DNA of 64,000 bases from Acanthamoeba castellanii str. Neff (taxonomy: Eukaryota > Discosea > Longamoebia > Acanthamoebidae), in NCBI RefSeq assembly GCF_000313135.1, contig NW_004457654.1, positions 1,378,730 through 1,442,729 on the forward strand. The letters are read 5' to 3'. Numbering within the stretch: the first letter of the stretch is position 1; the number at the start of each line of letters is the position of its first letter. The position numbers were made by a program, and so were the translations under genes. Positions 1 to 64,000 of the stretch are shown piece by piece. Under the pieces are notes generated by a model. It searched no databases. It saw only the letters and a program-made list of their open reading frames with translations, and was not told the origin of the DNA.

Positions 1-2602
1 AACAGCTGGCGACGAGGAATTGATGAAGTCAGCGGTGCCAGTGTCACTTTCTCACAACACATCAACAACAGCGTTGAAGGCGTCGTCGGTGCCGGGAGAG
101 GGTACTCGTAGTCGGGTGGCTTCGTCGAGGGTGTTGATACGCTCGCAGCGAATGAGATCAATGCCTCCGTCGCAATCGGGTAGGTCGAGCACTTTCTTGT
201 TGTATCGAAGGGCTTGAATGGTGTTCTTCAGGCAGATGGCGTGGTCCACATAACGCTGTGTGTGCGCATAGCCAAATAGAGCGTTAGGAGAAGAAACATA
301 GGCCACCGTAGCAGAAACGGGCATACCTGCGCCTCGCCTTCGGCTTTGGGCTTCACCAGCTGCAGCTCCTCCAGCAGACTGTCGAGGAACTCGTCCGAAA
401 GCTTGCCTCGCTCGAACATGGTCACTGTCACGACAAAAGGAGAAGACATGAATGAGACGACGCGAAGGGCTTCGTGCCTGTACAGAGGCACAACGCACCA
501 GCGTGCGTCTTGAGTCCGGCGCCGAGGTTGCCCATCATTAGGTAGGCCGTAATCGTCGAATCGAACAGGAAGGCAATTCGCTTTGAATGCTCCACCTGTG
601 TGGTGACGGCCGAAAATGCAAACAGTGCGCGCAGAGTAAGCAAAGGCTCGACCGCGGATCCACCCGAGAATACCGTGAGTGAGTACCGTGGGAACGCTGT
701 CGGGTTTGGACAGGGGTGTGGCGACGACGGTGCTGATATCCTCCGAGGAAGCGGTGGGCTCGGAGAAGAACGACGGATAGTACGACGCGGAGCCCTCGCC
801 GTCCTTCTGGGTGAACGTGAGCGTGACCTCCTTCGCAGGCCTCTTCACTCCCGGCGACGTCGGACCCGCCATCGCCAGCCAAGACGGATGCCACCGCGTC
901 TTGAGCTTCCCCGAGCCATCGTCCAGCGTCTAGAATGGAATTGCCCAGGGGCAAGACGTGTGAGTCCGGTGGAAGCGCGCAACAAGGTACAGCACTTGAA
1001 GAGGGCGGTGACGACGTACTGGCTGGGCGAGCTCCTCGAAGTTCTTCTTCTTGGCGAACCCGAGCCGCAGATACAGCGAGAGGGCTTGCTGTGGGAGGAG
1101 GCCCCGGCGGAACACCAGTCAGTGATAGAAACGGGAAAAGGTGGTGACGTGAGGGCGGAGGAAGCGATGAATGTACTTTGATCATCTGGACGTCCATTTG
1201 CAGGATGTGCGCGAGCTGCTCCACATTGGTTCGCTCGTCGACCGAAACGAAGAGCTTGTAGAGCAGGTTCTCAAAGTAGTCGCCGATCACTCGATTCATG
1301 ACAAACCCTTCCAACGGCGGAACTGTTGTTTTCACACCAAGCCGATTTAGTCCAGCGGGCCAGTTGGCGGAGCCCGGGCGAATAATGGTGGGGCGCGTAC
1401 TGATGATGTAGTCTTCGTCGTAGACCGGCACATCGATATAGATGAGGCCCTTCGTGTAGAGGCTGTGAACGGTCGCTTTGTCCACTTCGCCGGCCTTACG
1501 CGTGCCCACGTCGATGAGCATGTCGATCACTGCATGCTCCATCTTCGTCGCATTCTGAAGAAAGTTACAAGTACGTCGTGAGTGACACCGCAGACCACCA
1601 AGCGAAGGAAGGTCGGACGTACGCGAATATCGTCCTCGGAGACGTAGCCGATGTTGATCTTCCACCAGTGCGCGATTTCAATGGGCACCGGTTGCGAGGG
1701 CAGCAGTTCGAACAGCGCTCCACGCTTTCGCCTCCAGAGCCACGACTACGAGCACGTGTCAAGTCAAGCCACACAGCAGCGGATATAAGCAAAAGGCAAC
1801 GTCAACGACGTGTCGCGTGTAAGGCGGGTCATGCTGCGCAGACTGGAGGGTCTAACCTTGCCGCGCACGGTGTTCATGGTGTCTATGTATTGGTTGCGCC
1901 CAATGCCCAGCAGGCGAACACCTGGCGACCCACACACAGTAGAAAAAAATGATCAATAAATAGATAAATAAATTATCAGGAGCCACAGCTAACAGCAGAG
2001 AGGAGACAAGGTACAGTCGGATGCGGTGAAGTTGGGCAGCCGGTCATAGGATCGTTCTGTAAGGTGCGAGGAGTGTGCGTGTGGTTGTCAGTGATCCTCA
2101 ACCAACTGCAGCGTAGAATAAGAAGAAAGAAGGAGCAAGCGAGCAACCTTCTTTCATGACGTCGTGCATCATGTTCAGGTAGTATTTGAAGGGCGTGATG
2201 CGCAGACCCTTCACCATCACGTCCGACAGATGGTACGGGTACAGCTGCACAGTGTGAAGCAGAGTGAGTGGGTGTAGTGCGCGGACCGCAGCCTGCCGGG
2301 GTGTGGAGCGGTACCATGAGGTGGGTGCGGCTCCAGGCCATGAGTTCGTCGAAGTAGTTCTTCTCGCTGGGCATGACGCTACGCACGAGGTGGTCGCGCC
2401 ACCGCAGCTGGTGCTCGATGGAGTAGAGCACCACGTATTCCTTCCACGCTTCGATCGAGTTGCCGAACATGCCCTTGACCTTGGGCGGGAGCGCGTTCCA
2501 CACTGCGCGGTCCAGGATGTAACCCTCCACCTCCTCCTTCTCGGCCTCCGTCAGGTTCACCCCCACCGAGACCGTGCCCCCCGACAGATTCATGCTCAAC
2601 AT
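1..2602 (-). CDS. FAM91A1-like: FAM91 family protein (FAM91A1-like), 3' part outside window
   Basis: In animals FAM91A1 works with TBC1D23 and WDR11 in capturing endosome-derived vesicles at the trans-Golgi. Several exons read as this family in order. The first, from ATG 2602, holds the [15 protein letters not shown] and [16 protein letters not shown] blocks. About 2250-2150 gives [19 protein letters not shown]. About 1740-1630 gives [15 protein letters not shown] and GYVSEDDIR before a GTACGT donor. About 1555-1185 gives [28 protein letters not shown] and [17 protein letters not shown]. About 1090-1000 gives [12 protein letters not shown]. The C-terminal GGIDLIRCE block lies at about 160-100, and the reading frame runs off the left edge. 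An in-frame GTG lies upstream at 2674, but 2602 is the first ATG. Family assignment is firm; the small exons are approximate. Confidence 0.88.
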
Positions 2603-2871
2603 TTTTCCTTCTAATCGCTCAAGCTCTCGCCGTTTTGAGGAAATCTTTCCTGACGCTGGCTCTCGCTCCTGCACTCGTTGGTGGCCGCCCCCTGCTCCTC
2701 AACGCTTGCCGCTCTCTTGCACTGCTGTGCCGTTGCGCCTCTCTGCAGAAATAATAACAATAAAATAATACATCGAAAATTGAACCCTCTCTTCCCCTTT
2801 CCTCTTGGCCGCAGAGTGGTGGTTGGTGTTGTTCTGTTCTCATAGCCGCTTCGCGTTGTTGCTGTCATCGT

Positions 2872-4245
2872 CTAGTCATCGCGGGGAGGGTGGGAGAAGT
2901 GGCGAAGGTGATCGGCGTTGCGTCGATAGCACTGCGCGCCGTAACGGCACGCGGGCCGCTCCCCGTTCTCGTCGTAGTCCGAGCCCTCGCTCACCTGCAA
3001 CCACGTAGGCCAAGTTGATCAGCATGACAACCATCAGATCTGTGGCAATGACTATGATGAGACACTTCACGCCACGTACGTGCTCCTCGTCGTCGCTGTT
3101 GTCGTCGGCGTTCTTCTTCCACTCGGCTGCGTCGAAGCGATCCGGGTCCTCCATGGGGTCCACCTCTTCTCCTTCCTCCTCGCTGCCCGCGCCTTCGTCC
3201 ATAATGCCGGCCTCCTCCACCAGCTCCAGGTACTCGCCCATCCGCTCCTTGGCCACTCGCGCCGCGTGCCGGCTGCCTGCCCTCCTCCTGGGGACTTCGC
3301 GGCTGTGGCTGGTGCCACCTCGTCGCTGCCCTGCGCCTCGGCCCCGGCCTCTGCTCGGCAATCCTCTACTCGCTCCATGATCGTGTCTGCTGACTGAAGT
3401 CGAGGATGAAGAGGAAGAGGAAGAGGAAGATGCCGATGACGACGAAGAAGATGAAGATGGGGCAGGTCGTGACTTTTTCCTGTCGGGCTCGCTTGCGGGT
3501 TCATCGTCGCTTCCCTTGTTGATCTTGCTGAGCTCGAGCGATGTGATCAGTCGCTCGGTCCGGGCGACTTCGATCTCGCGCTGCGCGGCGGCTATGACCT
3601 CTCTCGCCTGTGCGATGTCGACCTCGGCCTCCTCCTTCTGCTCTCGCTCCGCTCGCTCCAGCCGCTCCCTGTCTCTCTCATCACGCGTCTGCTGCGGCTC
3701 TTTTTCCTCGGCGTCACCAGCGTCTTCAAAGGGCAGCTTTCGCTTCTTCGACGTCGCCACCCTCTCAGTTTGAACCACACGGTGTCCTGTCGTAGTGGGA
3801 GCTGCTCCATCCACGCCTTCGATGGCTGGCGCGTTGGCGCGGCCGCTAGTGTTACCGTCGCCATCAAGTTCGAGCACGAGGGGATGGAGGTCGGCGAGCA
3901 GAGTGACCACGTCGCCGTTCCTCAGGATGGCCTCTTCTCCGCGCGACAGCAGTTCCCCGTCTCCCGCCTTGCCTGCCCTCCGCACATACACCGGGTTCAC
4001 CCCTTCCCTATCATGGCACGCCCAGACAGCGTCAACAAGGGGGGGGGGAGAAAAAGAGTGATGAAGTGGTGGCGTACACGGTGTACGTACACGGTGACGG
4101 CGAGGGCGGGACCACGCAGACTGATTTGCAGTTGCCGGCGGCTGATGCGCTTGTCCGTGACGCCCAGCACGCCCCGCCCCAAGTAGGTAACCTCTCCCTC
4201 CACCAGCTCCACCGCCTCCCCGCTCTCGCAATGGCGCAGCCGCAT
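2872..4245 (-). CDS. FHA domain plus PBZ zinc finger protein (APLF-like, DNA damage response)
   Basis: The N-terminus is a forkhead-associated (phosphothreonine-binding) domain: GVTDKRISRRQLQISL is the hallmark, followed after a short intron (about 4098-4028) by GVNPVYVRR and GDVVTLLADLHPLVLEL. A long charged middle follows, with an E/R-rich segment, a serine tract and an Arg/Gly patch. After an intron at about 3079-2995 (GTACGT donor) the last exon encodes a single C2H2 PAR-binding zinc finger, CRYGAQCYRR then HLRHFSHP, which fits C-x5-C-x6-H-x5-H. The stop TAG is at 2872-2874. In animals, FHA plus PBZ is the architecture of APLF, which binds XRCC1/XRCC4 and poly(ADP-ribose) during strand-break repair. 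Human APLF has two PBZ fingers; here only one is seen. The role is inferred from the domains. Confidence 0.85.
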
Positions 4246-4591
4246 GACCGAGGCCTCTTTCTGTTGTGGGGTGTTTTGTTCGGCCGTTGTCGTCTTGGTC
4301 TCGTCGCCAACGGCTACTTACAAAATAAATATTTCAATAATAAATGACGCGTTGGTGAAGAGCCTTTCTTGCAGCACTTGAAGAAAGGTCGGTACAAGCA
4401 GATAGAGCACATCTCTCTGCAACGAAAGAGGGAGGATAGCAGCGCTTGCCCCTGGGCAGACGTGGCGCAGGAGCTCCTGTTGACAGATCGCTACACGCGC
4501 GCCTGGAAAACTCGTGCCAGAGGGCGGTACTCGTCGCACAAGGTGTAGCCAGCCACTGTGATGATCCAGGCCTACACCTCCGATCCACCTT
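4246..4591. other. Intergenic, no gene seen
   Basis: This stretch lies between the start of the FHA-PBZ gene and the stop of the F-box/14-3-3 gene, both on the minus strand. It contains a short AT-rich patch (about 4318-4345) and no reading frame that I can support. Confidence 0.5.
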
Positions 4592-6156
4592 CTAAAGGAG
4601 GATGGACGAAGACGTGTTAGACACAGGTCGGAACCGACAGGGCATGTCCACATGGGGCGAACCTTTAGAACGACCCTTGCATTTGGCAGAGCTGTTGGCA
4701 CCGGATCGGAAGGTGAGGCAGTCGCGAAGCACTTGCATCGTGCGGCTGCTGTTTTTGTAGGATTCCTCGTCCAGCGTGTCCAACTCGGCAATCGCATCAT
4801 CGAAAGCCTCCTTCGCCAACGTGCACGCTCTGTGAACACACACACACACACACACACACATGATACAAACATGTTAACGTCGATATACGCGTGGGCGGTG
4901 CTGCGGATGTGGTGCGTACTTTTCCGACTGCTTTAGGATGTAATACTGAAAGAGGGAGAAGTTGAGGGCAAGGCTAAGACGAATGGGATGAGCTGGTGGT
5001 AGCTCCAGGATCGCGATGTCCGACGCCTGGGTAAAGTAGTTCACCGCGTTCTGGATCGCTTCCTTCCTCTCGCCCTCGGACCCGAACTCAGCGAGATGCC
5101 GATAGTAGTCCCCCTTCCTGCACATGGCCCGCTCGCAGCGCGCATGTCAGTACCAACAATTGATCGTAGAAAAGAAGTGAGGAGGCGTACATCTTTAAGA
5201 AGAAGACGCGGGCCTCGGCGGAGACGGTGTGCGGGATCACGTAGACGTCGAGTACGGCCAGCAGGTCGCGACAGACGAAACATATCTCCGATTCGAGGGC
5301 ACTTCGGTACTTGATGATGTGGTCCGCGAAGGAGTCGCTTCGAATACTGCGCTTCTCCTTCTTCTCGCACTCGACGATCCGTTCCCACGACTCTCGCGTG
5401 CTCGTTATTTGGTGCTTGTAAGCCCGTGACAGAAGGTTGCGCTCCTCGACCGTCAGCTCCACGCCCAGCATCGCCACGTTCTTGATTGCCGTCACCATCT
5501 CTGCACCACCCAAGCACGTAAGCAAGGGTCAGCAAGAGTGCGTTGAGAGCCCTCGCCCAGCACAAGGCGATGGGAGCAGCTAGAGTCCTGGAAAGGCATT
5601 CTGCATGCATCGTGGAGGCACGCGAAGGCGTTGGGTGCTCTGTGTAGTTTGCAGGGGGCGGGCTAATACCTGAGTAGCGCTTTGCCTGCTCGGCGATCTG
5701 GGCAAAGAACACCTCCTGGTGTCGTCGAATGTGTATAATGAGGCGAGGGTCGGTGGCGATTACGTTCCAATTCTTACACACGAGGCGAAGGCTCTGCCAA
5801 TCGTCCCACCACCGCTGGTTCTTGCTATTTTTGCCTCGCTTCTTGCCTCTCCCCCCTCCAGATCCATCTCCTCGCGATGGCCATGAGCTCGATCTCGATT
5901 TGCAGTGCAGATGGGGCAGCAGGTGGAGCGAGGGCAGGAAGCTTCGTCGTGGCGAGGTAAGCGCGGCAGATGAGGACGATGGAAACACCACAGCGGGTGC
6001 AGATGAAGAGGAGGAGGAAGTCGTGGAAGATGAGAAGGAGACGGGATGGAGGTGGGAGCTATGTACACCTTGTGTTGCGAATTTGAGAAAAGGATTCACC
6101 TCGGGGATGAGGAATTTCATGATGTGCGCGATGAGCTCGGTTGGCAGCTGTTCCAT
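4592..6156 (-). CDS. F-box/14-3-3 fusion protein
   Basis: From ATG 6156 the protein begins with an F-box ([13 protein letters not shown]), whose second half, [20 protein letters not shown], lies in a later stretch. The same exon and frame runs straight into 14-3-3 helix 1, [16 protein letters not shown]. It then splices (donor at 5669, next exon from 5500) to [29 protein letters not shown], and on to [36 protein letters not shown] and [18 protein letters not shown]. The tail RDCLTFRSG ends at TAA/TAG 4592. All nine 14-3-3 helices appear to be present. F-box proteins are substrate receptors of SCF ubiquitin ligases and 14-3-3 binds phosphopeptides, so an E3 receptor reading phosphorylated clients is a reasonable inference. 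Against typical 14-3-3 zeta, the groove residue Tyr128 is His here and Arg60 is Glu, while Lys49, Arg56 and Arg127 are kept. Between the F-box halves lies either a Ser-rich insert or a roughly 230-nt intron (possible donor GTGTACATAG near 6055). Confidence 0.85.
4836..4860. repeat. (CA)n microsatellite
   Basis: A run of CA dinucleotides that falls inside an intron of the F-box/14-3-3 gene. On the coding strand it lies just before the exon beginning with [11 protein letters not shown]. Confidence 0.9.
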
Positions 6157-27387: not shown

Positions 27388-27629
27388 CGCTGCCTCTCTC
27401 GCATCTAGAGCCGCTCGCAGCCGACCACCACCGTGTTCCGTGTCTTTGCAAAGATGCTCTCAACGCAGTTCTGCGCTCCGGTCCTGTGTTCACCTTCAAG
27501 GTGGTCTGCCAAGCTGCCCTGTGTCCAGGTGCTATCGTGTGATTTCTGATTGGCCCATTTTCAAACAAAGACAGCAGCAAAAGAAAAAGAAGCTTCTGGG
27601 CGAGAAAAGAAAGGTTGCGAAGCTCAGAG

Positions 27630-30132
27630 ATGGAAGCGCTCAACGCCACGTTTGCCGACCTCTCGGCGCAGACCGGGTTCCCGGCTGATCAGCTCAAGTA
27701 CCTAGCGTGCTTGCTGGCCGCCATCCCTCTGTCCTACATCTTTCGCCTTCTCGGCCCGGGACGCGAGAATGCGAAGCATGTCCTCTCCATTGTGATTAGC
27801 ATTTTCTTCTGCCATTTCTCGCTCGGCGAGTACTCATGGATCCATTCCCTCGTCACGGCCATGATCTCCTACACTCTCTTGTCTATCCTGCCCCATGGCA
27901 TTGCCCACAAGGCCGTCTTTGTGGTATCCCCCCCCCCGGGCTTCTCTTTCAAACAGCAACATCCTGTCGGAGTCGGCCTTCCGATTGCCTAAAATCTCTT
28001 TTGCTACTCTGGTTCCTCGTGACTTGTGCAGTTCGCGATGGGCTACCTGTCTGTTGGGTAACCACTTCAATCTCGATTTTAATTTCAATAATTGTAATTA
28101 TTTGTGTCTGGTTGTGCATGGGGTGCTTGCTCCTTCTCGCCAGAGATTATTAATTATTTTGACGCTGTTGTTGCGCAGACACATCTACCGTATGTACACC
28201 GACTGGAGCGGCTGGACCCTCGACTTCAGCGGTCCTCAGATGATCCTCACTATCAAGCTGACCACCATCGCCATGGACTACTACGATGGCAACAGGAGCA
28301 AGGCCGAAAAGGAGGTACACCACCGTTCGATCGCCCGTCTCCCTCTTGAGCTCCACCGACGACCTCTCTGCCTCGTTGCCGGCTTGCTCATTGCGTCGCT
28401 ATGAAACACTTCACAGGTAATGAGCCCCTTCCAGAAGGAGCACCGCATCGAGAGGTTGCCCAGCATGCTGGAGTTCTTTGGGTGCGTTACCGACCGTTTG
28501 ATGAATTCTCTCATCCACAACCACCACGCGCCCGAGTTGTCTCATCTCTCAGTGCGTGTCTGACGTGTGTTGTGTGTGCTGTGCGTGTGTGTGTGCGTGC
28601 GTCCAGCTACGTGTATTTCTTCCCCGGCTTCCTCGCCGGTCCGGCCATCCTCTTTGCTGATTACCGAGCGTTCATCACCGGAGCCATGTTCAAGGTGGGC
28701 GCACGCATCCGCATGGGCGGGGTGGTGCTGGGCTGGGCGCACTGCATGAATGTCATGGGCTTACGCGCTTCATCTCCGCCTCTCGTGGTGGCGCTGGTGG
28801 TGATGATAGGAGTTCCCTGGTAGAGTGTCTCCGAACCCCGTGGTCCCGTCGATCATCGCGCTGGGCAAGGCCATCTGCGTGTTCCCTCTGCTCGTGCTCG
28901 CCGGCCACTTCCGCCCCATCGACCTCGCTCTGCCCTCCTTCATCGAGGCCCCCGTCTGGGAACAGTACATGCGCTGCCCGCTCGCCCACCCACCCAAGCT
29001 AGCGGGATGTTGCTTGCTTGCGGGACCTGACCATGTGCTCGTGCACCGCATACTACACCCACGCAGGATTGGGCGCTTCTATCTCCACGTCTCGTTGATG
29101 CGCACCAAGTACTACTTCGGTTGGTTCCTGGCCGAGTCCTCCTGCATCGCCTCTGGCTTCGGCTACAGCGGCAAGGACAAGAGGGGCAACATCAAGTGGT
29201 GCGTGGTGCCTTCACTCCCCCGATGGGGCGCTCTCGAGCCGCTCACCTCCTACGTCGCTCACCACCCGCTTTCCACGCTTCAGGGACCGTGCGGCCAACG
29301 CGTTCCCTCTGGCTGTCGAGTTCGCGCCCAACATTCGCGGCATCACCGACAACTGGAATCTGGGCACTGCCACATGGCTCAAGCACTGTACGCTCCTCAA
29401 TGCCGCGCCGTTCTCGCACTCGCACTCAGCTACCACTAGTGGTTCCTAAGGAACGCTCACGCTCTTCTCCTCCCAGACATCTACCTCCGCTTCAGCGATC
29501 AGCGCAGCATGCTGCCGACCATCGCCACCTACGCCTGCAGCGCCTTCTGGCATGTACGTGTGCCCCCACCTCTGCATAATATCCCGCCCTGACTGCATCT
29601 CGTACTTACCGTGGTCGTCGCGTGTGCACGCAGGGGTTCTATCCCGGCTACTACCTCTTCTTCATCGCCTCGGCTTTCCTGACGGAGGCCTCGAAGGGTA
29701 CGTCGCACTCCCGCTCGCACGCGGTGATCTGCGAGGTGGTGTGGTGGCCTCACTCACTCTCTCTCTCGTCGTTCGTCGTTCTGACCGGCAGAGGTGAGGA
29801 GGAAGATCCGTCCGCTCGTCATGAAGGACGAGGTCACCCCGCTGTACCCGCAGAAGTACGTCTACGACGTCTTGGGCATGGTCGCCACTTCGCTCACCAT
29901 GAACTACATCGGTCTGTCGTTCGTCGTACGTCGGCCCTCCCTCTCCGTGTGTGTGTGTGTGTTGCTCCCCTAATATGCACCGAACGAGCAGATTCTGGAG
30001 TGGCCGCCGGTCTACCACGTCTGGAAGTCGACCTACTTCATCGGACACGTCCTGCTGTTCGCCACCTGGTTCGTCGTCACCTACGTCATCCCCGCCAGAC
30101 CCCGGTCCGCGGCGCCCAAGAAGGTCGCGTGA
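27630..30132 (+). CDS. MBOAT lysophospholipid acyltransferase
   Basis: Membrane-bound O-acyltransferases of this branch (LPCAT3/MBOAT1-2/ALE1) re-acylate lysophospholipids in the Lands cycle. From ATG 27630 the exons read YLACLLAAIPLSYIFRLLG, HIYRMYTDWSGWTLDFSG, PQMILTIKLTTIAMDYYDG, RIERLPSMLEFFGYVYFFPG, FLAGPAILFADYRAF, KYYFGWFLAESSCIASGFGY, NIRGITDNWNLGTATWLKHY (with the conserved Asn) and ATYACSAFWHGFYPGYYLFF (the catalytic His), and the end is SAAPKKVA, whose lysines could act in ER retention. There are about eleven exons with short introns. Substrate class is inferred from the family blocks; phosphatidylcholine versus other head groups cannot be told. Confidence 0.92.
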
Positions 30133-37369: not shown

Positions 37370-39099
37370 ATGACCCTCCTCGAACTGGATACGTGGACTT
37401 CGCCGGTCAATTGGGCGTATCTTTTGACGTCGGCCTTAGTGGTGTTCTTCCTCGCGGACCACCTGAGCACGCTGAGGAAGCGCAAGAGCCTCCCGGGTCC
37501 GTTGTTCGCTTGGCCCTTCTTCGGCGCCATCTTCGAGATGGTGTGGGATCCGACCAACTTCTGGGATCGTCAGGAGACCTTCGGCCCGCTCTCGTGGAAT
37601 GCGCTCTTCGGCAAATTCATGGTCTTCTCGCGCGACACCGACACTTCGATCAAGATCTTCAAGCACAACAGCCCCGAGGAGCTCAAGATCGTGCTCCATC
37701 CCAACGCTGTGCGTCTTCTCGGCGAGGACAACATCGCCTTCATGCAGGGCCCTGGCCACAAGGAGCTGCGCAAGCGTCTCCTGCCCCTCTTCACCAAGAA
37801 GGCTCTCGGCGTCTACCTCAACATTCAGGAGAAGGCCATCCGCGAGCACCTCGCTAACGTACGTCAATCTGCCTTTTTTTTTTTTAGAAACTCAAGTGTC
37901 GGCGCCGTCCTCGATTTCCCGCTCCATCGATTCAATCTCATCATCCAATTTTTCTTTTCTTCCAATATTGGAAGTCTTTCAAAAACAAAGGCCATTTGCT
38001 CTGTCTCACCTCCAATTACGATGAAGAAATGAAATACGGAAGATCTTACAGTTTTGTATCTAACAACACCCACGGGTACCATCTCATTCTATTCTACACA
38101 CAGTGGGTCAAGCTCCCTCAGCCTCAGAAGATGCGCGACCTGTGCCGCGATCTCAACGTCGATACCTCGCAGTCGGTGTTCATCGGCCCCTACCTGTCGG
38201 GCGACGAGAGGAAGGAGTTCGCCAAGAACTACATGATGATGAACGAGGGCTTCCTGGCCTTCCCGCTGTGCATCCCCGGCACCGCCCTGTACAGGGCCGT
38301 GCAGGCGCGCAAGAAGGTGGTGGCCACGCTGACCACCTGCGCCAAGCTCAGCAAGGACAGGATGAGCAAGGGCGTCGAGCCCGAGTGCCTGTTGGACTTC
38401 TGGATGGAGAAGACCGTCGCCGAGATCCAGGAGGCCAAGGCCGCCGGCGCGCCGGCCCCGCCGCACAGCTCCGACCACGAGGTGGCGTGCACCACGCTCG
38501 ACTTCCTCTTCGCCTCGCAGGACGCCTCGACCGCGTCGCTCGTGTGGACTTGCGGCCTCGCCCTCACCGGCAACCCCGACGTGCTCGCCAAGGTGCGCGC
38601 CGAGCAGCTCAAGCTGCGCCCCAACGACGACCCGCTCACCACCGACGTGCTCGGCGACATGCCCTACACCAACCAAGTGGTCATGGAGCTCCTCCGCTAC
38701 CGCCCGCCCGCCACCCTCGTGCCGCACATCGCCCTCAAGGACTTCCAGCTCACCGACAACGTCAACGTCCCCGAGGGCTCCCTCGTCGTTCCCTCCGTGT
38801 GGGGCGCCTGCCACCAGGGCTACACCAACCCCAACACCTTCGACCCCGACCGCTTCTCCCAGGAGCGCGGCGAGGACCGTAAGTACGGCAAGAACTTCCT
38901 CACCTTCGGCAGCGGCCCCCACTACTGCCTCGGCAAGCAGTACGCCATCAACCACTTGATGTCCTTCCTCTCCATCATGTCCATCAACGTCGACATGAAC
39001 CGTCACCGCACTCCCGAGAGCGAGACCATCGTCTACGGCCCCACCATCTTCCCCGCCGACGGTGTCATCGCCGACATGAAGGAGAAGAAGTACTACTAG
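37370..39099 (+). CDS. Cytochrome P450, CYP61/CYP710-type (sterol C-22 desaturase)
   Basis: CYP61 (ERG5) and CYP710 introduce the C-22 double bond of ergosterol or plant-type sterols; Acanthamoeba makes ergosterol, so this is a good fit. Two exons, 37370-37858 and 38104-39099, give 494 residues with an uninterrupted frame. The N-terminus has a membrane anchor (WAYLLTSALVVFFLADHL) and a proline-rich hinge (SLPGPLFAWPFFG). Helix I reads LDFLFASQDASTASLVW, the family's variant of the oxygen-binding motif. ExxR is in VVMELLRYRPP, followed by ATLVPHIALKDFQL. The haem loop is LTFGSGPHYCLGKQYAINH with the Cys ligand. The assignment to C-22 desaturase rather than another P450 rests on QDAST and RYRPPATLVPH. 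The intron (245 nt) is longer than most here and AT-rich. Confidence 0.88.
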
Positions 39100-57765: not shown

Positions 57766-59004
57766 AAGCTGCTGTTGTGTTAGCCCCCAGGTGAGGGCAA
57801 TGTGTGGTGGAAAACAACATAAATGATCTTTCCCTCATAATGACTCTTCGATGTATCTTTTTTTCCATTACGTCGTCGATGGATCGTTTTTTCCCATTAT
57901 GGTGTTGGTTTTCGGGTGACCGTCCGATGACGTCGTCGCGTGGATAACGCGGGCGGTGGCCGATCGACCAACAACCGGAGCAGAGCGCTCCAATGGCTCC
58001 TGCTGGCGACACACCACCACGGCGGCGACGACGACGACGACGCGGCACTCCTCCTCACCATCGCACTCGACCACTGCGACGACAAAGACGGCGACGTCTC
58101 GCGACGGACCACAAACGCGAAATCGATCTTTGGGTTTCATTTCCCCGGTCGCATCACCAGCACCACGCGCACGCCGCGCCGGCGTCGTCGCAGTTCCACC
58201 CGAACATACCCACCGCGGCAACGCCGACGCGAGACCACCACCCTCGACCACCTCCCGCCAAGGTGCTGGCCCGGCGAGCCGTAGTGTGCTGCCGCCACGC
58301 AAAGAGAGATTGGCGAGAACAAGTCGGTGGACCGCAGGCTGCCTTGGCGCGTGCCGCTCCAGCGCGAGACGGACGTGTCTCCATTGGGCAGAGTGATGCG
58401 CACCACGGCCGGCGCCAAGCAGGCGCTGCATGAACACTGGCAGGACGGCGCCGTCGCCAACACACAGGTTGCGCATGTCGGCGTTGGTTTAGTTGCCCAC
58501 GGCGTTGACGAACGCGGGCGGCAGGCGGTCGTCCATGTCCCACAAGGGGTTTTTGATCCGCGCGCCCAGAGGCCCCTCGACGTGCCCTAGCCCCACCAAT
58601 TGAATGATGGCGATCAAAAGGAATGATTGTAACGAGTTCGAGAGGTACTCAGCACCCAGGGAATTCACTAGTGACGCTCATAGTCCTGTGTTTACGCACG
58701 CGATAATCTTAGGGCATGTTCCACGAGGATCTTCTGATATGAGGAACCACGGACAGGAACCACCCAAGCCAGACCCATCAGTTCGGCTCTCATGCCAAGC
58801 AGCTTGAACATGCACTGGAGTAGGATGAATGCTTCTTAGTTCCGGCTCTTGGGTGCTCCGCAGACAACCTACTCCCTACAAAGAGGTTTTTAACACTACC
58901 ATGATCGACCACACTCAACCCCTTTCCTCAGGACCCTCGTCATGCCCAAGGTGAACTCCAAAAGATTTGAAATGTTGGCGCACGAGGTACATCAGATTCA
59001 GTTA
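57766..59004. other. Gene-poor stretch, possible gene debris
   Basis: No intact gene is seen. The left half (57890-58590) is CpG-rich with long frames on both strands caused by base composition; the minus-strand candidate is annotated separately. The right half (58600-58940) has a lower GC content, short open frames only, and no recognised signal. Confidence 0.45.
57868..58590 (-). pseudogene. Degraded minus-strand open frame, origin unknown
   Basis: Read on the minus strand from about 58590, the frame gives ARIKNPLWDMDDRLPPAFVN, then an in-frame TAA (about 58494), then ADMRNLCVGDGAVLPVFMQ and a long Ala/Arg-rich tail to 57868. The first part looks protein-like, the tail does not. In another frame the stretch near 58390-58330 gives VRITLPNGDTSVSRWSGTRQ followed by GSLRSTDLF, which loosely recalls a reverse transcriptase NG...GxRQG block. 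That similarity is short and may be chance. A relic of a gene or of a retroelement is possible. Confidence 0.25.
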
Positions 59005-60340
59005 TCAGTTCACAGGGACGAACAACAGGTCCCACACATAATCATAGCTTCTGTAACTACCGAAGGGAGAGGCCTGAAGATCCATCGTATTGACGTCGAA
59101 GAACAGCAGGTGGGGAGGGCCACCGAACTTGGCGCTAACCACGTAGATGCCACTCTCCTCGTCGAGCGCAGCCACGTTCCTCTGTACAGTCCAAAAGACT
59201 GGGATGTGCTTGCGTTGGATCACCACTCCCTTGGTGGCATCGATCGCTGTGGCAAGGAGTAGGCCACGTTAGCCCACCCTCGAAACCTCCACAGCTAAGC
59301 TTGAAGGGGGTTCTACCTTGGAAGACCAGTGTCGAGTTCACTTGCCCAACGGTGTAAATGGTTTTCAGATCACGGGAAAGCACAGGAGCAATCATGCTTT
59401 GCTGTACACGAGCACAGATGATTAGGACCGATGGGAAGTGAGCATGGTCCACTCTCTTGTCGTACCTCGATCTTTTGATTATAGAAAGGTGTGCCAGGGG
59501 CACGAAGAGAGATTCGCCAGGTCTCCCACAGATTGCTGTTAGCACTTGCCATGAGAAGCATCTGTTGAGACGGCATGGAACTCACCCATCAGGCTTTGTG
59601 TCGAGGCAGGGGAAGATGGGTGGCACTGACCTCCTGTGTGTACGGATTGATGGCCACACGGCCGTTGATGCCCCAGCAGCCAGAGGCAGGAAGGTCATGC
59701 TTGTAGGTGGCCAGCAGTTTTAAGCCTCCTGTCGCTGGATGCACCTGAGAAACCACCACCAAGTGTTAACTTTCTGGGTGATGAGAGGAACGGCTGGTAG
59801 ATGCGCATCAACCTCATACAAGCGGAACTCCGGAACATCTTGAACCTGCGTGAAGGCGTAGAGCTTGGAGTCTAACTTGTTGGCCGCGAGTTGCCACAAG
59901 CCACATTCGTCCTTGGCCAAGGTCACATTCACATAGATCCCTTTCACCTGGTCTTCTTCGTGTAACAGCGTGATCAGAGCAGGTTGGCGGAGGGCGAGAG
60001 TGTCTCCTCCCCAGAACAGGGCCTGTGTACGCAGGAGAGGAAGAGGTAAGATAACTGCACACACAAGCTTGGTATTGGAGTTATAGGATACCGTTGAGCT
60101 GCCATATCTACCGACTGAGAGCAGCTTCCTCTGTGGAGGCCAGGTCGTGATGTTTGAGGCTGCTAGTTGTTGGAATAAGATGCTATCATTTGGGCTGCTT
60201 GCGAACTCGCCATAGACGCCGCTTCTGAGCAAGCCCGTCAAGAAGTTTCCCTCCTGGCGAACAACGTTCGCACAGGAGCAGCCTAACAGGAAGCCCAGCA
60301 AAAGGAAGATCAAAAGAGAGTGCAATCTAGTCAGCTTCAT
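59005..60340 (-). CDS. Predicted secreted protein, unassigned
   Basis: ATG 60340 opens a clear signal peptide: MKLTRLHSLLIFLLLGFLLG followed by CSCANVV, with cleavage expected near the CSCA. The mature part reads EGNFLTGLLRSGVYGEFASS, then after an intron ALFWGGDTLALRQPALITLL, ECGLWQLAANKLDSKLYAFT, VHPATGGLKLLATYKHDLPA with GCWGINGRVAINPYTQE, ASANSNLWETWRISLRAPGT, APVLSRDLKTIYTVGQVNST, GVVIQRKHIPVFWTVQRNVA and GIYVVSAKFGGPPHLLFFDV, ending DYVWDLLFVPVN. Repeating blocks of about 40 residues ending in aromatic-rich strands (LYAFTQV, IYTVGQV, IYVVSAK) suggest a beta-propeller. It has six exons and is about 53% GC, lower than the genes to the left. The role is unknown. Confidence 0.65.
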
Positions 60341-61265
60341 TGTGTTGTGCTCAACGTCGAAGAGCCAGCCCTAGACAAGCGCTTTCCCGAAAAGCAGTGC
60401 GAAAAGTTGGTATCTCCGTCAAACCTGCGTGGTTTGGAACTCTCCCCGTCCAATTCCTTTCTGATGGTGTGATTTGTCAGCAAATTGCTGCCACCACCTG
60501 ATTGGCCCATGTGGGACAACAGGTTGGACTGGTGGTAATTTCCTTCTTACCCAAGTGTCTTACACTTTGAAAAGTGAAATTTATTTGATTTAGGTGGTGT
60601 GAGTGGGAGCCATCATCAGTGGGCATCACTCCACATGTTCTCAGCTGCCTGAGGATGTGCCAACCTTGTGCAATATGAGGCTGCCTCCTCAGTGCACAAT
60701 CCTGCTTGAACAGCTTGCTGAGAGGGAATTTAAGCACCACAGAATTGTGGAAAAAAATTGGTTTCCATTTTGTCCAACTCTGGACTGGAATTTTCTTGTT
60801 GGACCATTCTCTGTTAGTCAACAAAATGTAGCAGTACACAGCAACTTTAAGGGAGCCAACTTCCAGTTTCATGCCCTGAAGTAGTACAGTACCCTTAAAA
60901 ATGGAGCCTGATTCCAATTGTGGCACTTCCTTGAAATTTCAAAACTGGGGTTTGGGGGGACCAGTTTTGTCCACATGAGAGACCAGGCAGGGACACACAG
61001 GCACTCTTGCTTGGCAGGGGAGTGGTGCTCCACTTCAAACCACTCCTTGGGGGACTTGCAGCAGGCATTCATTATTTCACAGAACTGGTCAAACATGGTG
61101 AGGTCAATTTGAATATCAATGTTGTGGGGTAAAGAAAGGTCATTTTGGTATCAGTAGTTTGGGTTTTGTAACTAAAGGACCATCTTGATTACAGACAGTT
61201 GTATAAATAAAATCTTGCCTTGTTTAGACCAAAAAGGAATTACAAAAGTAAGTGTTGGTTTCCAG

Positions 61266-62667
61266 TCAGTCAGAGACACAGGATCAGGGAACCATTACCC
61301 AGTTAACTAAACTCTTTGAACTGAACAACTCAGATATGACAGATTATCTGGCCAACAATCAATTCCACTACACAACTAAAGTAATGCCACATGAACTGAG
61401 CTTCTGAAATTATACTAAAAACTCAGTTTTGAAAACTGTGTTTCCATCAATTGGGATGACATTTCCCCAAAAGCTTATTTCACTGAACACCATATTAATG
61501 GACCAGAGCTGTTGGTGGCCAATTTTTCCTTGTGCCCATGAAAAAGAACATGACCACCAACAACACCTGCACCATGTACACCCTTCCCAATGAGAATTAC
61601 TGTCTTCAATGCATCTATACATCCTAAGGGTTTGTTGATCAAACTACCATTCTAATCAAACAACAACAACAACAACAACAACAGAAGAGAAAGCACAGCA
61701 GTGGTGCAACTGATGTGGGTCAGATTGCCACACAGCATGTCATTCAGACTGCCCAAGACTGGTGGAGCTCTGTTGGCAACTTCTTCCAGTTTGTCCTGGA
61801 CATGGAAGCACTGCTGGTGGGCAAGCTCAACATCACCTTCCTCTGGAGCTATCCTCATGTCCATGGCTGGATCACCTGGATTAACAAGTGGGTGGCTGGC
61901 TCAACAAAGAGGAACAAGGCACTCCACCTGATCAGCCTGCTCAAGTGGCTGGACAGTGAGTCAATCACCCCTGCATCATCTGGGATGCCTCACACTGCCT
62001 CACAAGCCTTTGTGCCTTCTCCAAACAGGGCAAGCAAAAGTACAACCAGTCCATGACCAAGGCCATGAACAACAATGAGCTGGTGGCAGCTGGCAATGCC
62101 CTCCACACCAACAAGCAGCCCACCTTCATCCTCTGGCTCCTGGACCATGTGGAGCACTGCTCTGCTCCCTTCCAGAAATCCCCACAGGACACCACATCCC
62201 TGGCAGTGAAGGTACACAAACAACCAAAGCAATTGAACCAAAGCAATTGTTCTGTTTTGCAAGTCAGGGTTTAGTTATAGAACTATTGGCCAACAGTTGC
62301 ATTGTGTGTTTTTGTGAGGAAATCACTAGTTCACAAACTAAACCCTAATTTTACTTTCTCTTTCTCTTCTCTTGTGTGCCAGGTGCCCAAAGCTGTGCAG
62401 GCTACAAGGTGGTGGCTTGCATTTCAGCTGCAGTGCTACATCCAGGTGCTGATGGAGGTCTTCAACAGTGGCTACTGGCAGGAGATTGTCAGTGTGAACT
62501 GCCTCAAGTGGTTGAGCACTGTCAACACCATTGAGGCAATGATACCCACTGAGAAGTTGACCTGCTTCAAGACTGACAAGGTGCCACTCAGCTCCTCCAT
62601 CAACTGCTACTCACCCTCTGGATCAACACCCATGGCCAGCCACTTCAGTTCAACAGCTACACACAAG
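61266..62667 (+). pseudogene. Coding-like, Trp-rich, CpG-free sequence with splice-like joints; probable decayed gene
   Basis: Open blocks with protein-like sequence occur in order: 61266-61380 (QLTKLFELNNSDMTDYLANN), about 61660-61950 (QDWWSSVGNFFQFVLDMEAL, PHVHGWITWINKWVAG, LISLLKWLD), about 62029-62211 (MTKAMNNNELVAAGNALHTN, FILWLLDHVEHCSAPFQ) and 62383-62667 (VPKAVQATRWWLAFQLQCYI, VLMEVFNSGYWQEIVSVNC). The last intron (GTACAC donor at 62212, acceptor GCCAG at 62382) is clean. Between the second and third blocks the obvious donor (GTGAGT) and acceptor leave the wrong phase, so the frame breaks there. Arg is scarce and coded only by AGA/AGG, while Trp, Gln and Cys are common, which fits former CGN codons changed to TGG, CAA/CAG or TGC. 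I do not recognise the protein. Confidence 0.45.
61661..61682. repeat. (CAA)n trinucleotide run
   Basis: About seven CAA units (a Gln run in the coding-like frame) at the start of the second coding-like block inside the CpG-free island. Confidence 0.85.
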
Positions 62668-62721
62668 GTGTTAAGAGTGTGTTGCAGGAGTTCCATCCCC
62701 TCCTCTCACTGACATCCCTCT

Positions 62722-64000
62722 CGCGACTACGACCTTGACGTTGTGTTGCTGATTTGAGCGCGACGAGGGCGCGGACAAAAGACGTCGGCATCGGTTCGCT
62801 ACTGGCACGCGTCGGCAAAGACGATGGACGCATCAGACCGCTGCCGATGTTGTGCGGGTCCACCGATGACGACGACTACGACGAGGGCGACATGACGATA
62901 CGGCGCAGGCGCTGTTGTGGCGAGGGCGCCGCAGACGACCACGACGCCAACTGGCCGCTGGCGCGGTTGCATCCACGCAGAGTCTCACACACACGCGCCC
63001 CATAGCCTGAGCTCGCCCTCCCCCAGCCCAGCCGACCCGACGTCTGGTACGGCTGCCAAGACCGACGATGTAGTCCGCGCGCCGACCTCTAGCACACATC
63101 CGGGTTGGCGCGCTGGCCAAGATTTGCGTAGTGCTGCAGGCGTCTGGCATGCTGGCATCTCGCGCGCTGGCGAATGCCGGCCTAGAGTTAACTACTACGT
63201 AGTGCTGCTCGCGTCTTGCGCGCTAGCGTCTCGCGTGCTGGCGCGCTGTCCAATTGTTGAGTATGGCACCTCGCGCGCTGGCGTCTCACGTGCTGGCGAA
63301 GAATGCTGACGTAACCCAAGAGTTGCGTCGTGCTGGCGTGCCGAGCGCTGGCGTCTGGTGTGTTGGGGTCTCGCGTGTGGGCGTGTCGCGAGCTGTCGTA
63401 TAGAGTGCTTATGTGCTGTCCAAGAACTGCGTAGTGTTGGCGCCTCTCGTGTTGGCGTGGCGCGCTGGCCCAGAATTTGTGGTGCCAACGCTGCGCCCCC
63501 GAGCTAGCGTCTCGCGTGCTGCCGGCAAGAGTATAGCGCGGTGCAGGCGATGGCAATGGCTGTAGCGCACGGGCGTGGGCCTGGTGTCTGTGGCGTCCTT
63601 GGTCTGACACAAAGTTGGTGCAAGCCCAACTCTGCTCGGCTCGACTCGACTCGACTCGTCGTCGGGTTGGAGGCTGGACCGCGTGGTGACGCCGACTCTG
63701 AGACGACGATGTCGCGGAGGGGCAAGCGCACTCACGCCAAGCTCGCCGAGCATGCCGCGCCGGTATCAGGGGGCTGCGCTCGCGCGAGTCGAGTAGGGCC
63801 GCGGCGGTATGGGTGGACAGCGCGCGCGAGTCGTGGGGGGGGGACGGATGCGATGGCAGGTGGAGCCAATGTCAACTTGGTTCAAGTCGCCGACGTGGTG
63901 GACCGAGTCGCAAACTCGGCTCGACTCGTCATCCGACACGCAAACCTTGGCCCGACACAAACTCGGCGCAGTGTACTCGGCGCAGTCTACTCGACGTGCG
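62722..64000. other. CpG-rich tail, no gene recognised
   Basis: From 62722 the sequence is very rich in CG. Open frames on both strands are long only because stop codons are rare in such DNA; their translations are Ala/Arg/Thr/Ser-rich with no domain. Motifs around CTCGACTCG recur near 63645-63660 and 63920-63930, and TCGGCGCAGT occurs twice at 63960-63990. The region to 64000 looks like repetitive, possibly subtelomeric or mobile-element-derived DNA. Confidence 0.5.
63090..63480. repeat. Degenerate tandem repeat, about 100-bp period
   Basis: The anchor CCAAGATTTGCGTAGTGCTG at about 63117 recurs in altered form near 63197 (ACTACGTAGTGCTGCTCGCG), 63312 (CCAAGAGTTGCGTCGTGCTG), 63419 (CCAAGAACTGCGTAGTGTTG) and 63470 (CCAGAATTTGTGG). 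Between anchors, short units like GGCGTCTCGCGTGCT are repeated with changes. The copies are diverged, and no coding sense is seen. Confidence 0.6.

What the first reader, a model, noticed from the sequence alone, without database searches (positions are those of the whole stretch)
60449..62721. A 2.27-kb stretch with no CpG dinucleotide, sharply bounded
I checked every base from 60449 to 62721 and saw no CG, where over a hundred would be expected. The edges are sharp: CG is normal to the left of 60448 and extremely frequent to the right of 62722. TG and CA are in excess. One reading is heavy cytosine methylation followed by deamination of an inserted element (transposon, viral insertion or silenced gene). 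Another is insertion of DNA from a source that lacks CpG, or an assembly join. Whichever holds, this segment has a history different from the rest of the window.
Basis: partly seen in the sequence, partly recalled or inferred. Interest (0 to 1): 0.92.

Follow-up and report, generated by a model that had tools for sequence, protein, structure and literature searches.

The report
CpG-free scar in amoeba subtelomere
A 2.3-kb piece of an amoeba chromosome has lost every CG pair, most likely because silenced DNA in this organism loses CG pairs by mutation far faster than other sites change, much like a genome-defence process known from fungi.

Summary
In detail: no CG lies between 60448 and 62722 (119 expected from base composition). 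The genome is Acanthamoeba castellanii Neff; the block holds a broken annotated gene (ACA1_073540). It is the inner edge of a 61-kb contig end, 49% of which is classed as CpG-depleted (ten segments); the 60 kb on the window's other side has none. Foreign CpG-poor DNA or an assembly join is unlikely: TG and CA are in excess, and retrotransposon copies show the change directly. In three Copia insertions with matching target-site duplications, the two LTRs differ at nine bases, all CpG to TpG/CpA, and at none of 498 non-CpG positions. Over 2.8 kb, two Copia copies lost CpGs roughly 60 and 150 times faster than other bases changed. Stops inside 64 reverse-transcriptase matches are 54 TGA, 3 TAG, 3 TAA. 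One copy lost CpGs on one strand over long stretches; a second did so weakly, a third not; the block itself shows no strand pattern. Best reading: methylated heterochromatin mutates CpG quickly, and this block is a fully erased case. Methylation here is inferred from published methylomes; whether an enzyme deaminates, as in fungal RIP, stays open.

The parts
60449..62721 (.). CpG-free block (C44:1439178-1441450 of the assembly)
61628..62721 (+). remnant of a protein-coding gene, annotated as ACA1_073540; reading frame changes near 61957 and 62610, so it reads as a pseudogene
   Evidence: no Pfam or PDB match
62212..62382 (+). probable intron of that remnant (starts GT, ends AG)
   Evidence: read from the sequence; inference, no transcript seen
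61659..61683 (+). AAC trinucleotide tract
59720..60340 (-). open frame starting with ATG at 60340 whose first residues look like a signal peptide; its start lies about 110 bp from the block's left edge
   Evidence: no Pfam match; signal peptide judged by eye
59001..60200 (.). left shoulder with reduced CpG (o/e 0.33-0.69)
62722..64000 (.). CpG-rich, G+C-rich flank (o/e 1.26), continuing to C44:1443753; parts are duplicated at C44:1490915-1491922

Best explanation
The block is a decayed gene remnant at the inner edge of a subtelomere-like heterochromatic region of A. castellanii. Shown: its CpGs are gone with TG and CA in excess; related copies elsewhere in the genome lose CpG as TpG or CpA while other bases hardly change. 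Inferred: the DNA was silenced and methylated at CpG by the amoeba's DNMT1/DNMT3 system, 5-methylcytosine deaminated to T, and the T:G mismatch was poorly repaired, so every CpG was lost before much else changed. The block's edges mark where the silenced state stopped (left, just upstream of a gene start) and where younger or unsilenced DNA begins (right).
For: Zero CG with TG 210/127 and CA 252/156 observed/expected. Ten depleted segments, 29,665 of 60,849 bp, between the block and the contig end, none in 60,446 bp to its left. LTR pairs of three Copia elements with 5-bp target-site duplications: 9 differences, 9 at CpG, 0 at 498 non-CpG positions (Fisher p 5e-9). In the C44 element the 5' part is depleted and the 3' part is not, so the boundary lies inside one insertion. 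C218 against C9, columns 1200-4772: 156 CpG transitions and 93 sites where the copies lost the same CpG on opposite strands, against 11 other transitions and 14 transversions, so the losses came after the copies separated. Stops inside 64 reverse-transcriptase matches: 54 TGA, 3 TAG, 3 TAA. All 12 of 12 fetched RVT_1 places are below o/e 0.7, graded 0.02-0.69. Published: 5mC in A. castellanii is at CpG, on silent genes, repeats and H3K9me3 regions (PMC12344493, section read); insertions near chromosome ends are methylated (PMC12210455, abstract and passages).
Against: No methylation data for this locus were seen. Strand-asymmetric loss in copy C218 is not expected of spontaneous deamination in double-stranded DNA. 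The block has no CpG-bearing relative, so its own ancestral CpGs are not shown one by one. Several depleted segments keep more CpG (o/e 0.25-0.31). The block is lower than the pool of the other low segments (12 expected, 0 seen; four higher-CpG segments were left out of that pool).
Confidence: 0.65

Rival explanations
1. Active, RIP-like hypermutation: an enzyme (a methyltransferase that lets its product deaminate, or a cytidine deaminase) works along one strand of silenced repeats and turns CpG to TpG, switching strands between tracts.
For: CpG loss in C218 and C9 about 150 and 64 times the non-CpG change; in C218 lost CpGs sit in same-strand runs (29 runs, 49 expected, 0 of 20,000 shuffles as low, 98 sites at which another copy keeps CG), whatever the codon position; C112 weakly so (48 against 57, p 0.047); C9's youngest LTRs are identical while its interior has lost half of the inferred CpGs.
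Against: C9 shows no runs once ascertainment is removed (13 against 12.3, p 0.71; 9 against 11.3, p 0.21). The block itself shows no TG/CA clustering (z +0.27). The left/right cut in C218 was chosen after seeing the data. Copies are graded, not all-or-none. No candidate deaminase was searched for.
Confidence: 0.22
2. Slow, ordinary loss of methylated CpG over a very long time, as in vertebrates, with no special tempo.
For: The block's gene is broken by frame changes and its only relative is 40-44% identical in protein, so the block may be old; copies are graded.
Against: LTR pairs and Copia copies show CpG loss with almost no other change. Zero CpG is lower than the vertebrate-like balance I recall (o/e about 0.2).
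Confidence: 0.09
3. Insertion of DNA from a CpG-poor source, or an assembly join.
For: Abrupt right edge; no DNA match elsewhere in the genome.
Against: TG and CA excess on both strands; an intron-like stretch; a CpG-poor relative on C210; the same pattern in ten segments of this contig end and inside host retrotransposons with target-site duplications; protein search found only the A. castellanii Neff gene model on this contig.
Confidence: 0.04

Closest known systems
Repeat-induced point mutation (RIP) and RIP-like C to T decay in fungi
   Same: C to T change confined to silenced repeats, fast against background, breaks open frames; CpG signatures and methyltransferase links are reported for some fungi (PMC4352252, abstract).
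   Different: Amoeba, not fungus; CpG context here, CpA in most fungi (PMC2621366, abstract start in a listing); no sign tested of a repeat-length rule, a meiotic stage or RID; the block is no longer a repeat.
Dim2-dependent mitotic C to T mutation in Zymoseptoria tritici
   Same: A DNA methyltransferase raises C to T mutation in transposons outside meiosis (PMC8016269, abstract).
   Different: CpA sites there, CpG here; no methyltransferase mutant examined here.
CpG depletion by 5-methylcytosine deamination (vertebrates, other methylated genomes)
   Same: CpG loss with TpG and CpA gain where DNA is methylated.
   Different: Here loss is complete in a 2.3-kb block and about 60-150 times other change between two copies; vertebrate figures of about 10-15 times and o/e about 0.2 are recalled, not tested.
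Methylated subtelomeric heterochromatin and viral insertions of Acanthamoeba (PMC12210455, PMC12344493)
   Same: Same species, same kind of place, CpG-only 5mC on silent DNA.
   Different: In the parts of these papers that I saw, CpG loss is not described ('CpG depletion' and 'TpG' 0 occurrences in PMC12344493; 'deamination' 0 in PMC12210455). No viral gene was found in the block.

Membership tests
Loss of methylated CpG by deamination | CpG deficit matched by TpG and CpA excess | tested here: met
   CG 0/119, TG 210/127, CA 252/156
Loss of methylated CpG by deamination | changes are CpG to TpG/CpA between copies of known common origin | tested here: met
   9 of 9 LTR differences in three elements. 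For the block itself no CpG-bearing copy was found
Loss of methylated CpG by deamination | both strands hit alike | tested here: inconclusive
   met in the block and in C9; not in C218; weak departure in C112
Loss of methylated CpG by deamination | the DNA is or was methylated | not testable with these tools
   no reads; species-level methylomes published (PMC12344493)
RIP | C to T decay of repeated copies | tested here: met
   Copia copies
RIP | CpA preference of the classical system | tested here: not met
   CpG only: 11 other transitions against 156 + 93 CpG sites in columns 1200-4772
RIP | depends on RID/Masc1-type methyltransferase | not tested
   PF00145 matches lie at four loci; subfamily not resolved by a tree
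RIP | acts before meiosis on duplicated DNA | not testable with these tools
   no crosses or time series
RIP | strand-coordinated tracts (recalled as a RIP feature) | tested here: inconclusive
   strong in one of three copies, absent in the block
Endogenous giant-virus insertion | viral genes in the block | tested here: not met
   no Pfam match in block frames; the only protein relative is the A. castellanii model; viral collections were not searched

The most novel reading that the evidence does not exclude
Acanthamoeba has an active genome-defence mutator outside fungi: silenced repeats and subtelomeric DNA are hit by strand-coordinated, CpG-only C to T conversion, starting inside young transposons and ending in CpG-free blocks that can no longer be methylated, so that the genome keeps a mutational record of past silencing.
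Probability: 0.22. Interest if true: 0.85.

Novelty: new variant of a known kind. Interest (0 to 1): 0.6.

Why it matters
If right, an amoebozoan mutates silenced DNA at CpG at a tempo that has been discussed mainly for fungal RIP, and CpG-free blocks are fossils of past methylation that 5mC maps cannot see because no CpG is left to read. That gives a sequence-only way to find old heterochromatin, dates transposon silencing by LTR pairs, warns that gene models such as ACA1_073540 can be eroded remnants, and gives a culturable organism in which to ask whether methylation alone or an enzyme drives the change.

Tried and rejected
Close DNA relatives of the block: none in the genome. Pfam, PDB and protein searches for the remnant's family gave no function (one PDB hit at E 2.2 ignored). 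Rfam and tRNA scans of the window: nothing. A first strand-run test made both C218 and C9 look coordinated; sites where the copies had lost a CpG the same way are invisible there, so a run in one copy forces the opposite run in the other. After removing this with sites at which another copy keeps CG, only C218 stayed strong and C9 lost the pattern. Selection on codons as cause of the strand pattern was rejected. Rows dropped: columns 1-1200 of the C218/C9 alignment were left out of the rates; in columns 208-1200 non-CpG change is high (66 other transitions, 106 transversions), so the two copies differ in descent there, and in the first 207 columns there are 2 transversions. Four depleted segments with more CpG (862, 3627, 6667 and 1563 bp) were left out of the pool. 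C186 gave no LTR pair in the 4,851 bases fetched and belongs to another Copia family. Loss of T:G repair: a UDG search found one match, with a TGA inside; the search is exon by exon and cannot show absence.

Full report
Observation. The window has 5,128 CG dinucleotides, but none between 60448 and 62722. From the block's own C and G counts 119 are expected; TG and CA are 1.65 and 1.62 times their expectation. A two-state segmentation sets the block at 60450-62721 and calls the 60,446 bp to its left one normal segment. The right edge is abrupt. The left edge has a shoulder from 59001 to 60200 with o/e 0.33-0.69.

Where it is. The window is C44:1378730-1442729 of a 38.4-Mb assembly of 250 contigs, and C44 is 1,500,027 bp long. 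Profilin from this assembly is identical over 125 residues to PDB 1f2k, recalled as A. castellanii profilin II; the only protein relative of the block's remnant is 'ACA1_073540 [Acanthamoeba castellanii str. Neff]', on a contig of 1,500,027 bp. So the gene model is this block. The remnant spans 61628-62721 on the plus strand, changes frame near 61957 and 62610, and has an intron-like stretch at 62212-62382. Its protein matches C210:71637-71753 (44% over 39 aa) and C210:71372-71545 (40% over 60 aa, one TGA), both on the minus strand of another CpG-poor block; the third piece found nothing else.

The region. From the block to the end of C44, ten segments covering 29,665 of 60,849 bp are classed as depleted, with o/e from 0 to 0.31, between segments of o/e 0.82-1.35 (sums by hand). 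C210 has three depleted segments, one of them mostly masked; the last, 80212-81774, contains TTAGGG-type repeats at the contig end. The last 1.5 kb of C124 is low too. Depletion is not limited to contig ends: it is seen at C94:880 kb, on C190, and inside retrotransposons elsewhere. An 11-kb depleted segment of C210 (27617-38705, 64 CG) is bounded at both sides by tRNA-Asp genes, at 27574-27646 and 38676-38748. Barrier function of tRNA genes is recalled from yeasts, not tested.

Direct view of the change. At C44:1458297-1462982 lies a Copia element (RVT_2 and Pol_BBD matches) with a target-site duplication AGTTG. Its 158-bp LTRs differ at five bases; each is a CpG in the 3' LTR and TG or CA in the 5' LTR. 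CpG is low from the 5' LTR to about 1461870 and normal from there to the 3' LTR, so the boundary lies inside one insertion. Element C218 (L053; TSD AACAG) has four LTR differences, all CpG; element C9 (L054; TSD GAGGA) has none. Pooled: 9 differences at 72 CpG-site bases, 0 at 498 others. These three are the elements for which an LTR pair was in hand; C186 was fetched without one and C112 is partial. In C218 and C9 the flanks and LTRs have normal CpG and the interior is low.

Tempo. C218 and C9 are copies of one family (86% over the whole length). In alignment columns 1200-4772 there are 3,198 identical bases, 156 CpG transitions, 186 bases at TG/CA alternates (93 sites), 11 other transitions and 14 transversions. 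Columns 208-1200 are different: 66 other transitions and 106 transversions; I left them out, as the copies do not share recent descent there. With a third copy, C112 (L056), 271 sites are inferred CpG in an ancestor; C218 keeps 48, C9 131, C112 24, while C218 and C9 differ at 26 of 2,272 other bases. Per C this is about 151 and 64 times the non-CpG change. The figures are rough: sites lost alike in all copies are missed, and non-CpG change was split equally.

Stops. Reverse-transcriptase matches were searched in six frames. RVT_1: 31 matches, 11 with stops, 23 TGA, 2 TAA, 0 TAG. RVT_2: 33 matches, 21 with stops, 31 TGA, 3 TAG, 1 TAA. TGA from CGA is what CpG loss makes; a general C to T process would also make TAA and TAG. 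Copies of one family are not independent. Twelve of the 31 RVT_1 places were fetched, nine of them with stops; their o/e runs from 0.02 to 0.69. This grading speaks against a single all-or-none event.

Strand. At sites where another copy keeps CG, C218 has 29 runs against 49.1 expected (98 sites, 0 of 20,000 shuffles), C112 48 against 57.0 (121 sites, p 0.047), C9 13 against 12.3 (24 sites, p 0.71). C218 is CA-rich on the left (26:10) and TG-rich on the right (41:8), at each codon position alike; the cut was chosen after looking. In the block TG and CA are mixed (z +0.27; 26 normal windows of the same size have mean -2.31). So strand coordination is shown for one copy, weak for one, absent in one, and not seen in the block.

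Mechanism. Published work that I saw reports CpG-only 5mC in A. castellanii Neff, with 966 hypermethylated windows over 3.4% of the genome, on silent genes and repeats, with H3K9me1/3 (PMC12344493, section read), and methylated viral insertions in subtelomeric regions (PMC12210455, abstract and passages). PF00145 matches lie at four loci in this assembly; one (C155) reads like DNMT1 by eye. The simplest account is methylation of silenced DNA followed by deamination with poor repair. A fast, CpG-limited process leaves zero CpG because back mutation is slow. An enzyme-driven, RIP-like process is the main rival; C218's strand pattern and the tempo favour it, C9, the block and the grading do not.

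Literature. Full-text searches listed no paper that in title or abstract start describes CpG-depleted blocks or RIP-like mutation in Acanthamoeba; one search found no paper with all its terms, and the two are on other subjects. The library holds open papers only. PMC8016269 and PMC4352252 were seen as abstract and outline; PMC11244446 and PMC12695648 as passages; PMC12344493 as abstract, section 6, first part of the discussion and passages.

Verdict. A real and sharply bounded feature; a known kind of decay (loss of methylated CpG) at an unusually fast tempo and to completion, in an amoeba. Probabilities: CpG to TpG/CpA decay of silenced host DNA as the cause of the block, about 0.9; methylation with poor repair, 0.65; RIP-like enzyme, 0.22.

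Noticed in passing
L028:860-1729 and 1840-3177 (G000:C94:879310-882486): A DNMT1-like gene (named by eye) has a CpG-normal part (o/e 1.28) and a CpG-depleted part (o/e 0.10): a methyltransferase copy that seems to be eroded itself.
   Followed up: partly
L013:7574-7646 and L014:8676-8748 (C210:27574-27646, 38676-38748): tRNA-Asp genes in opposite orientation sit at both edges of an 11-kb CpG-depleted segment.
   Followed up: partly
C44:1441699-1443365 and C44:1490915-1491922: The CpG-rich flank right of the block is duplicated near the contig end; in the two long alignments CpG is lost 15 and 4 times in the outer copy, 1 and 0 times in the inner one.
   Followed up: partly
C44:1481763-1482488 and C44:8838-9564: The two ends of contig C44 share a 96%-identical stretch in CpG-poor DNA, in inverse orientation.
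   Followed up: no
L005:5495-6637: Open frame with F-box and ankyrin repeats in a CpG-normal segment between depleted blocks.
   Followed up: no
G000:C124:12459-12935: The only UDG-superfamily match found in the genome has a TGA inside and lies 12 kb from a contig end.
   Followed up: no
L011, L013-L018, L020-L023: Long runs of N in the fetched contigs; they may be assembly gaps or masked stretches, so CpG counts there are partial.
   Followed up: no
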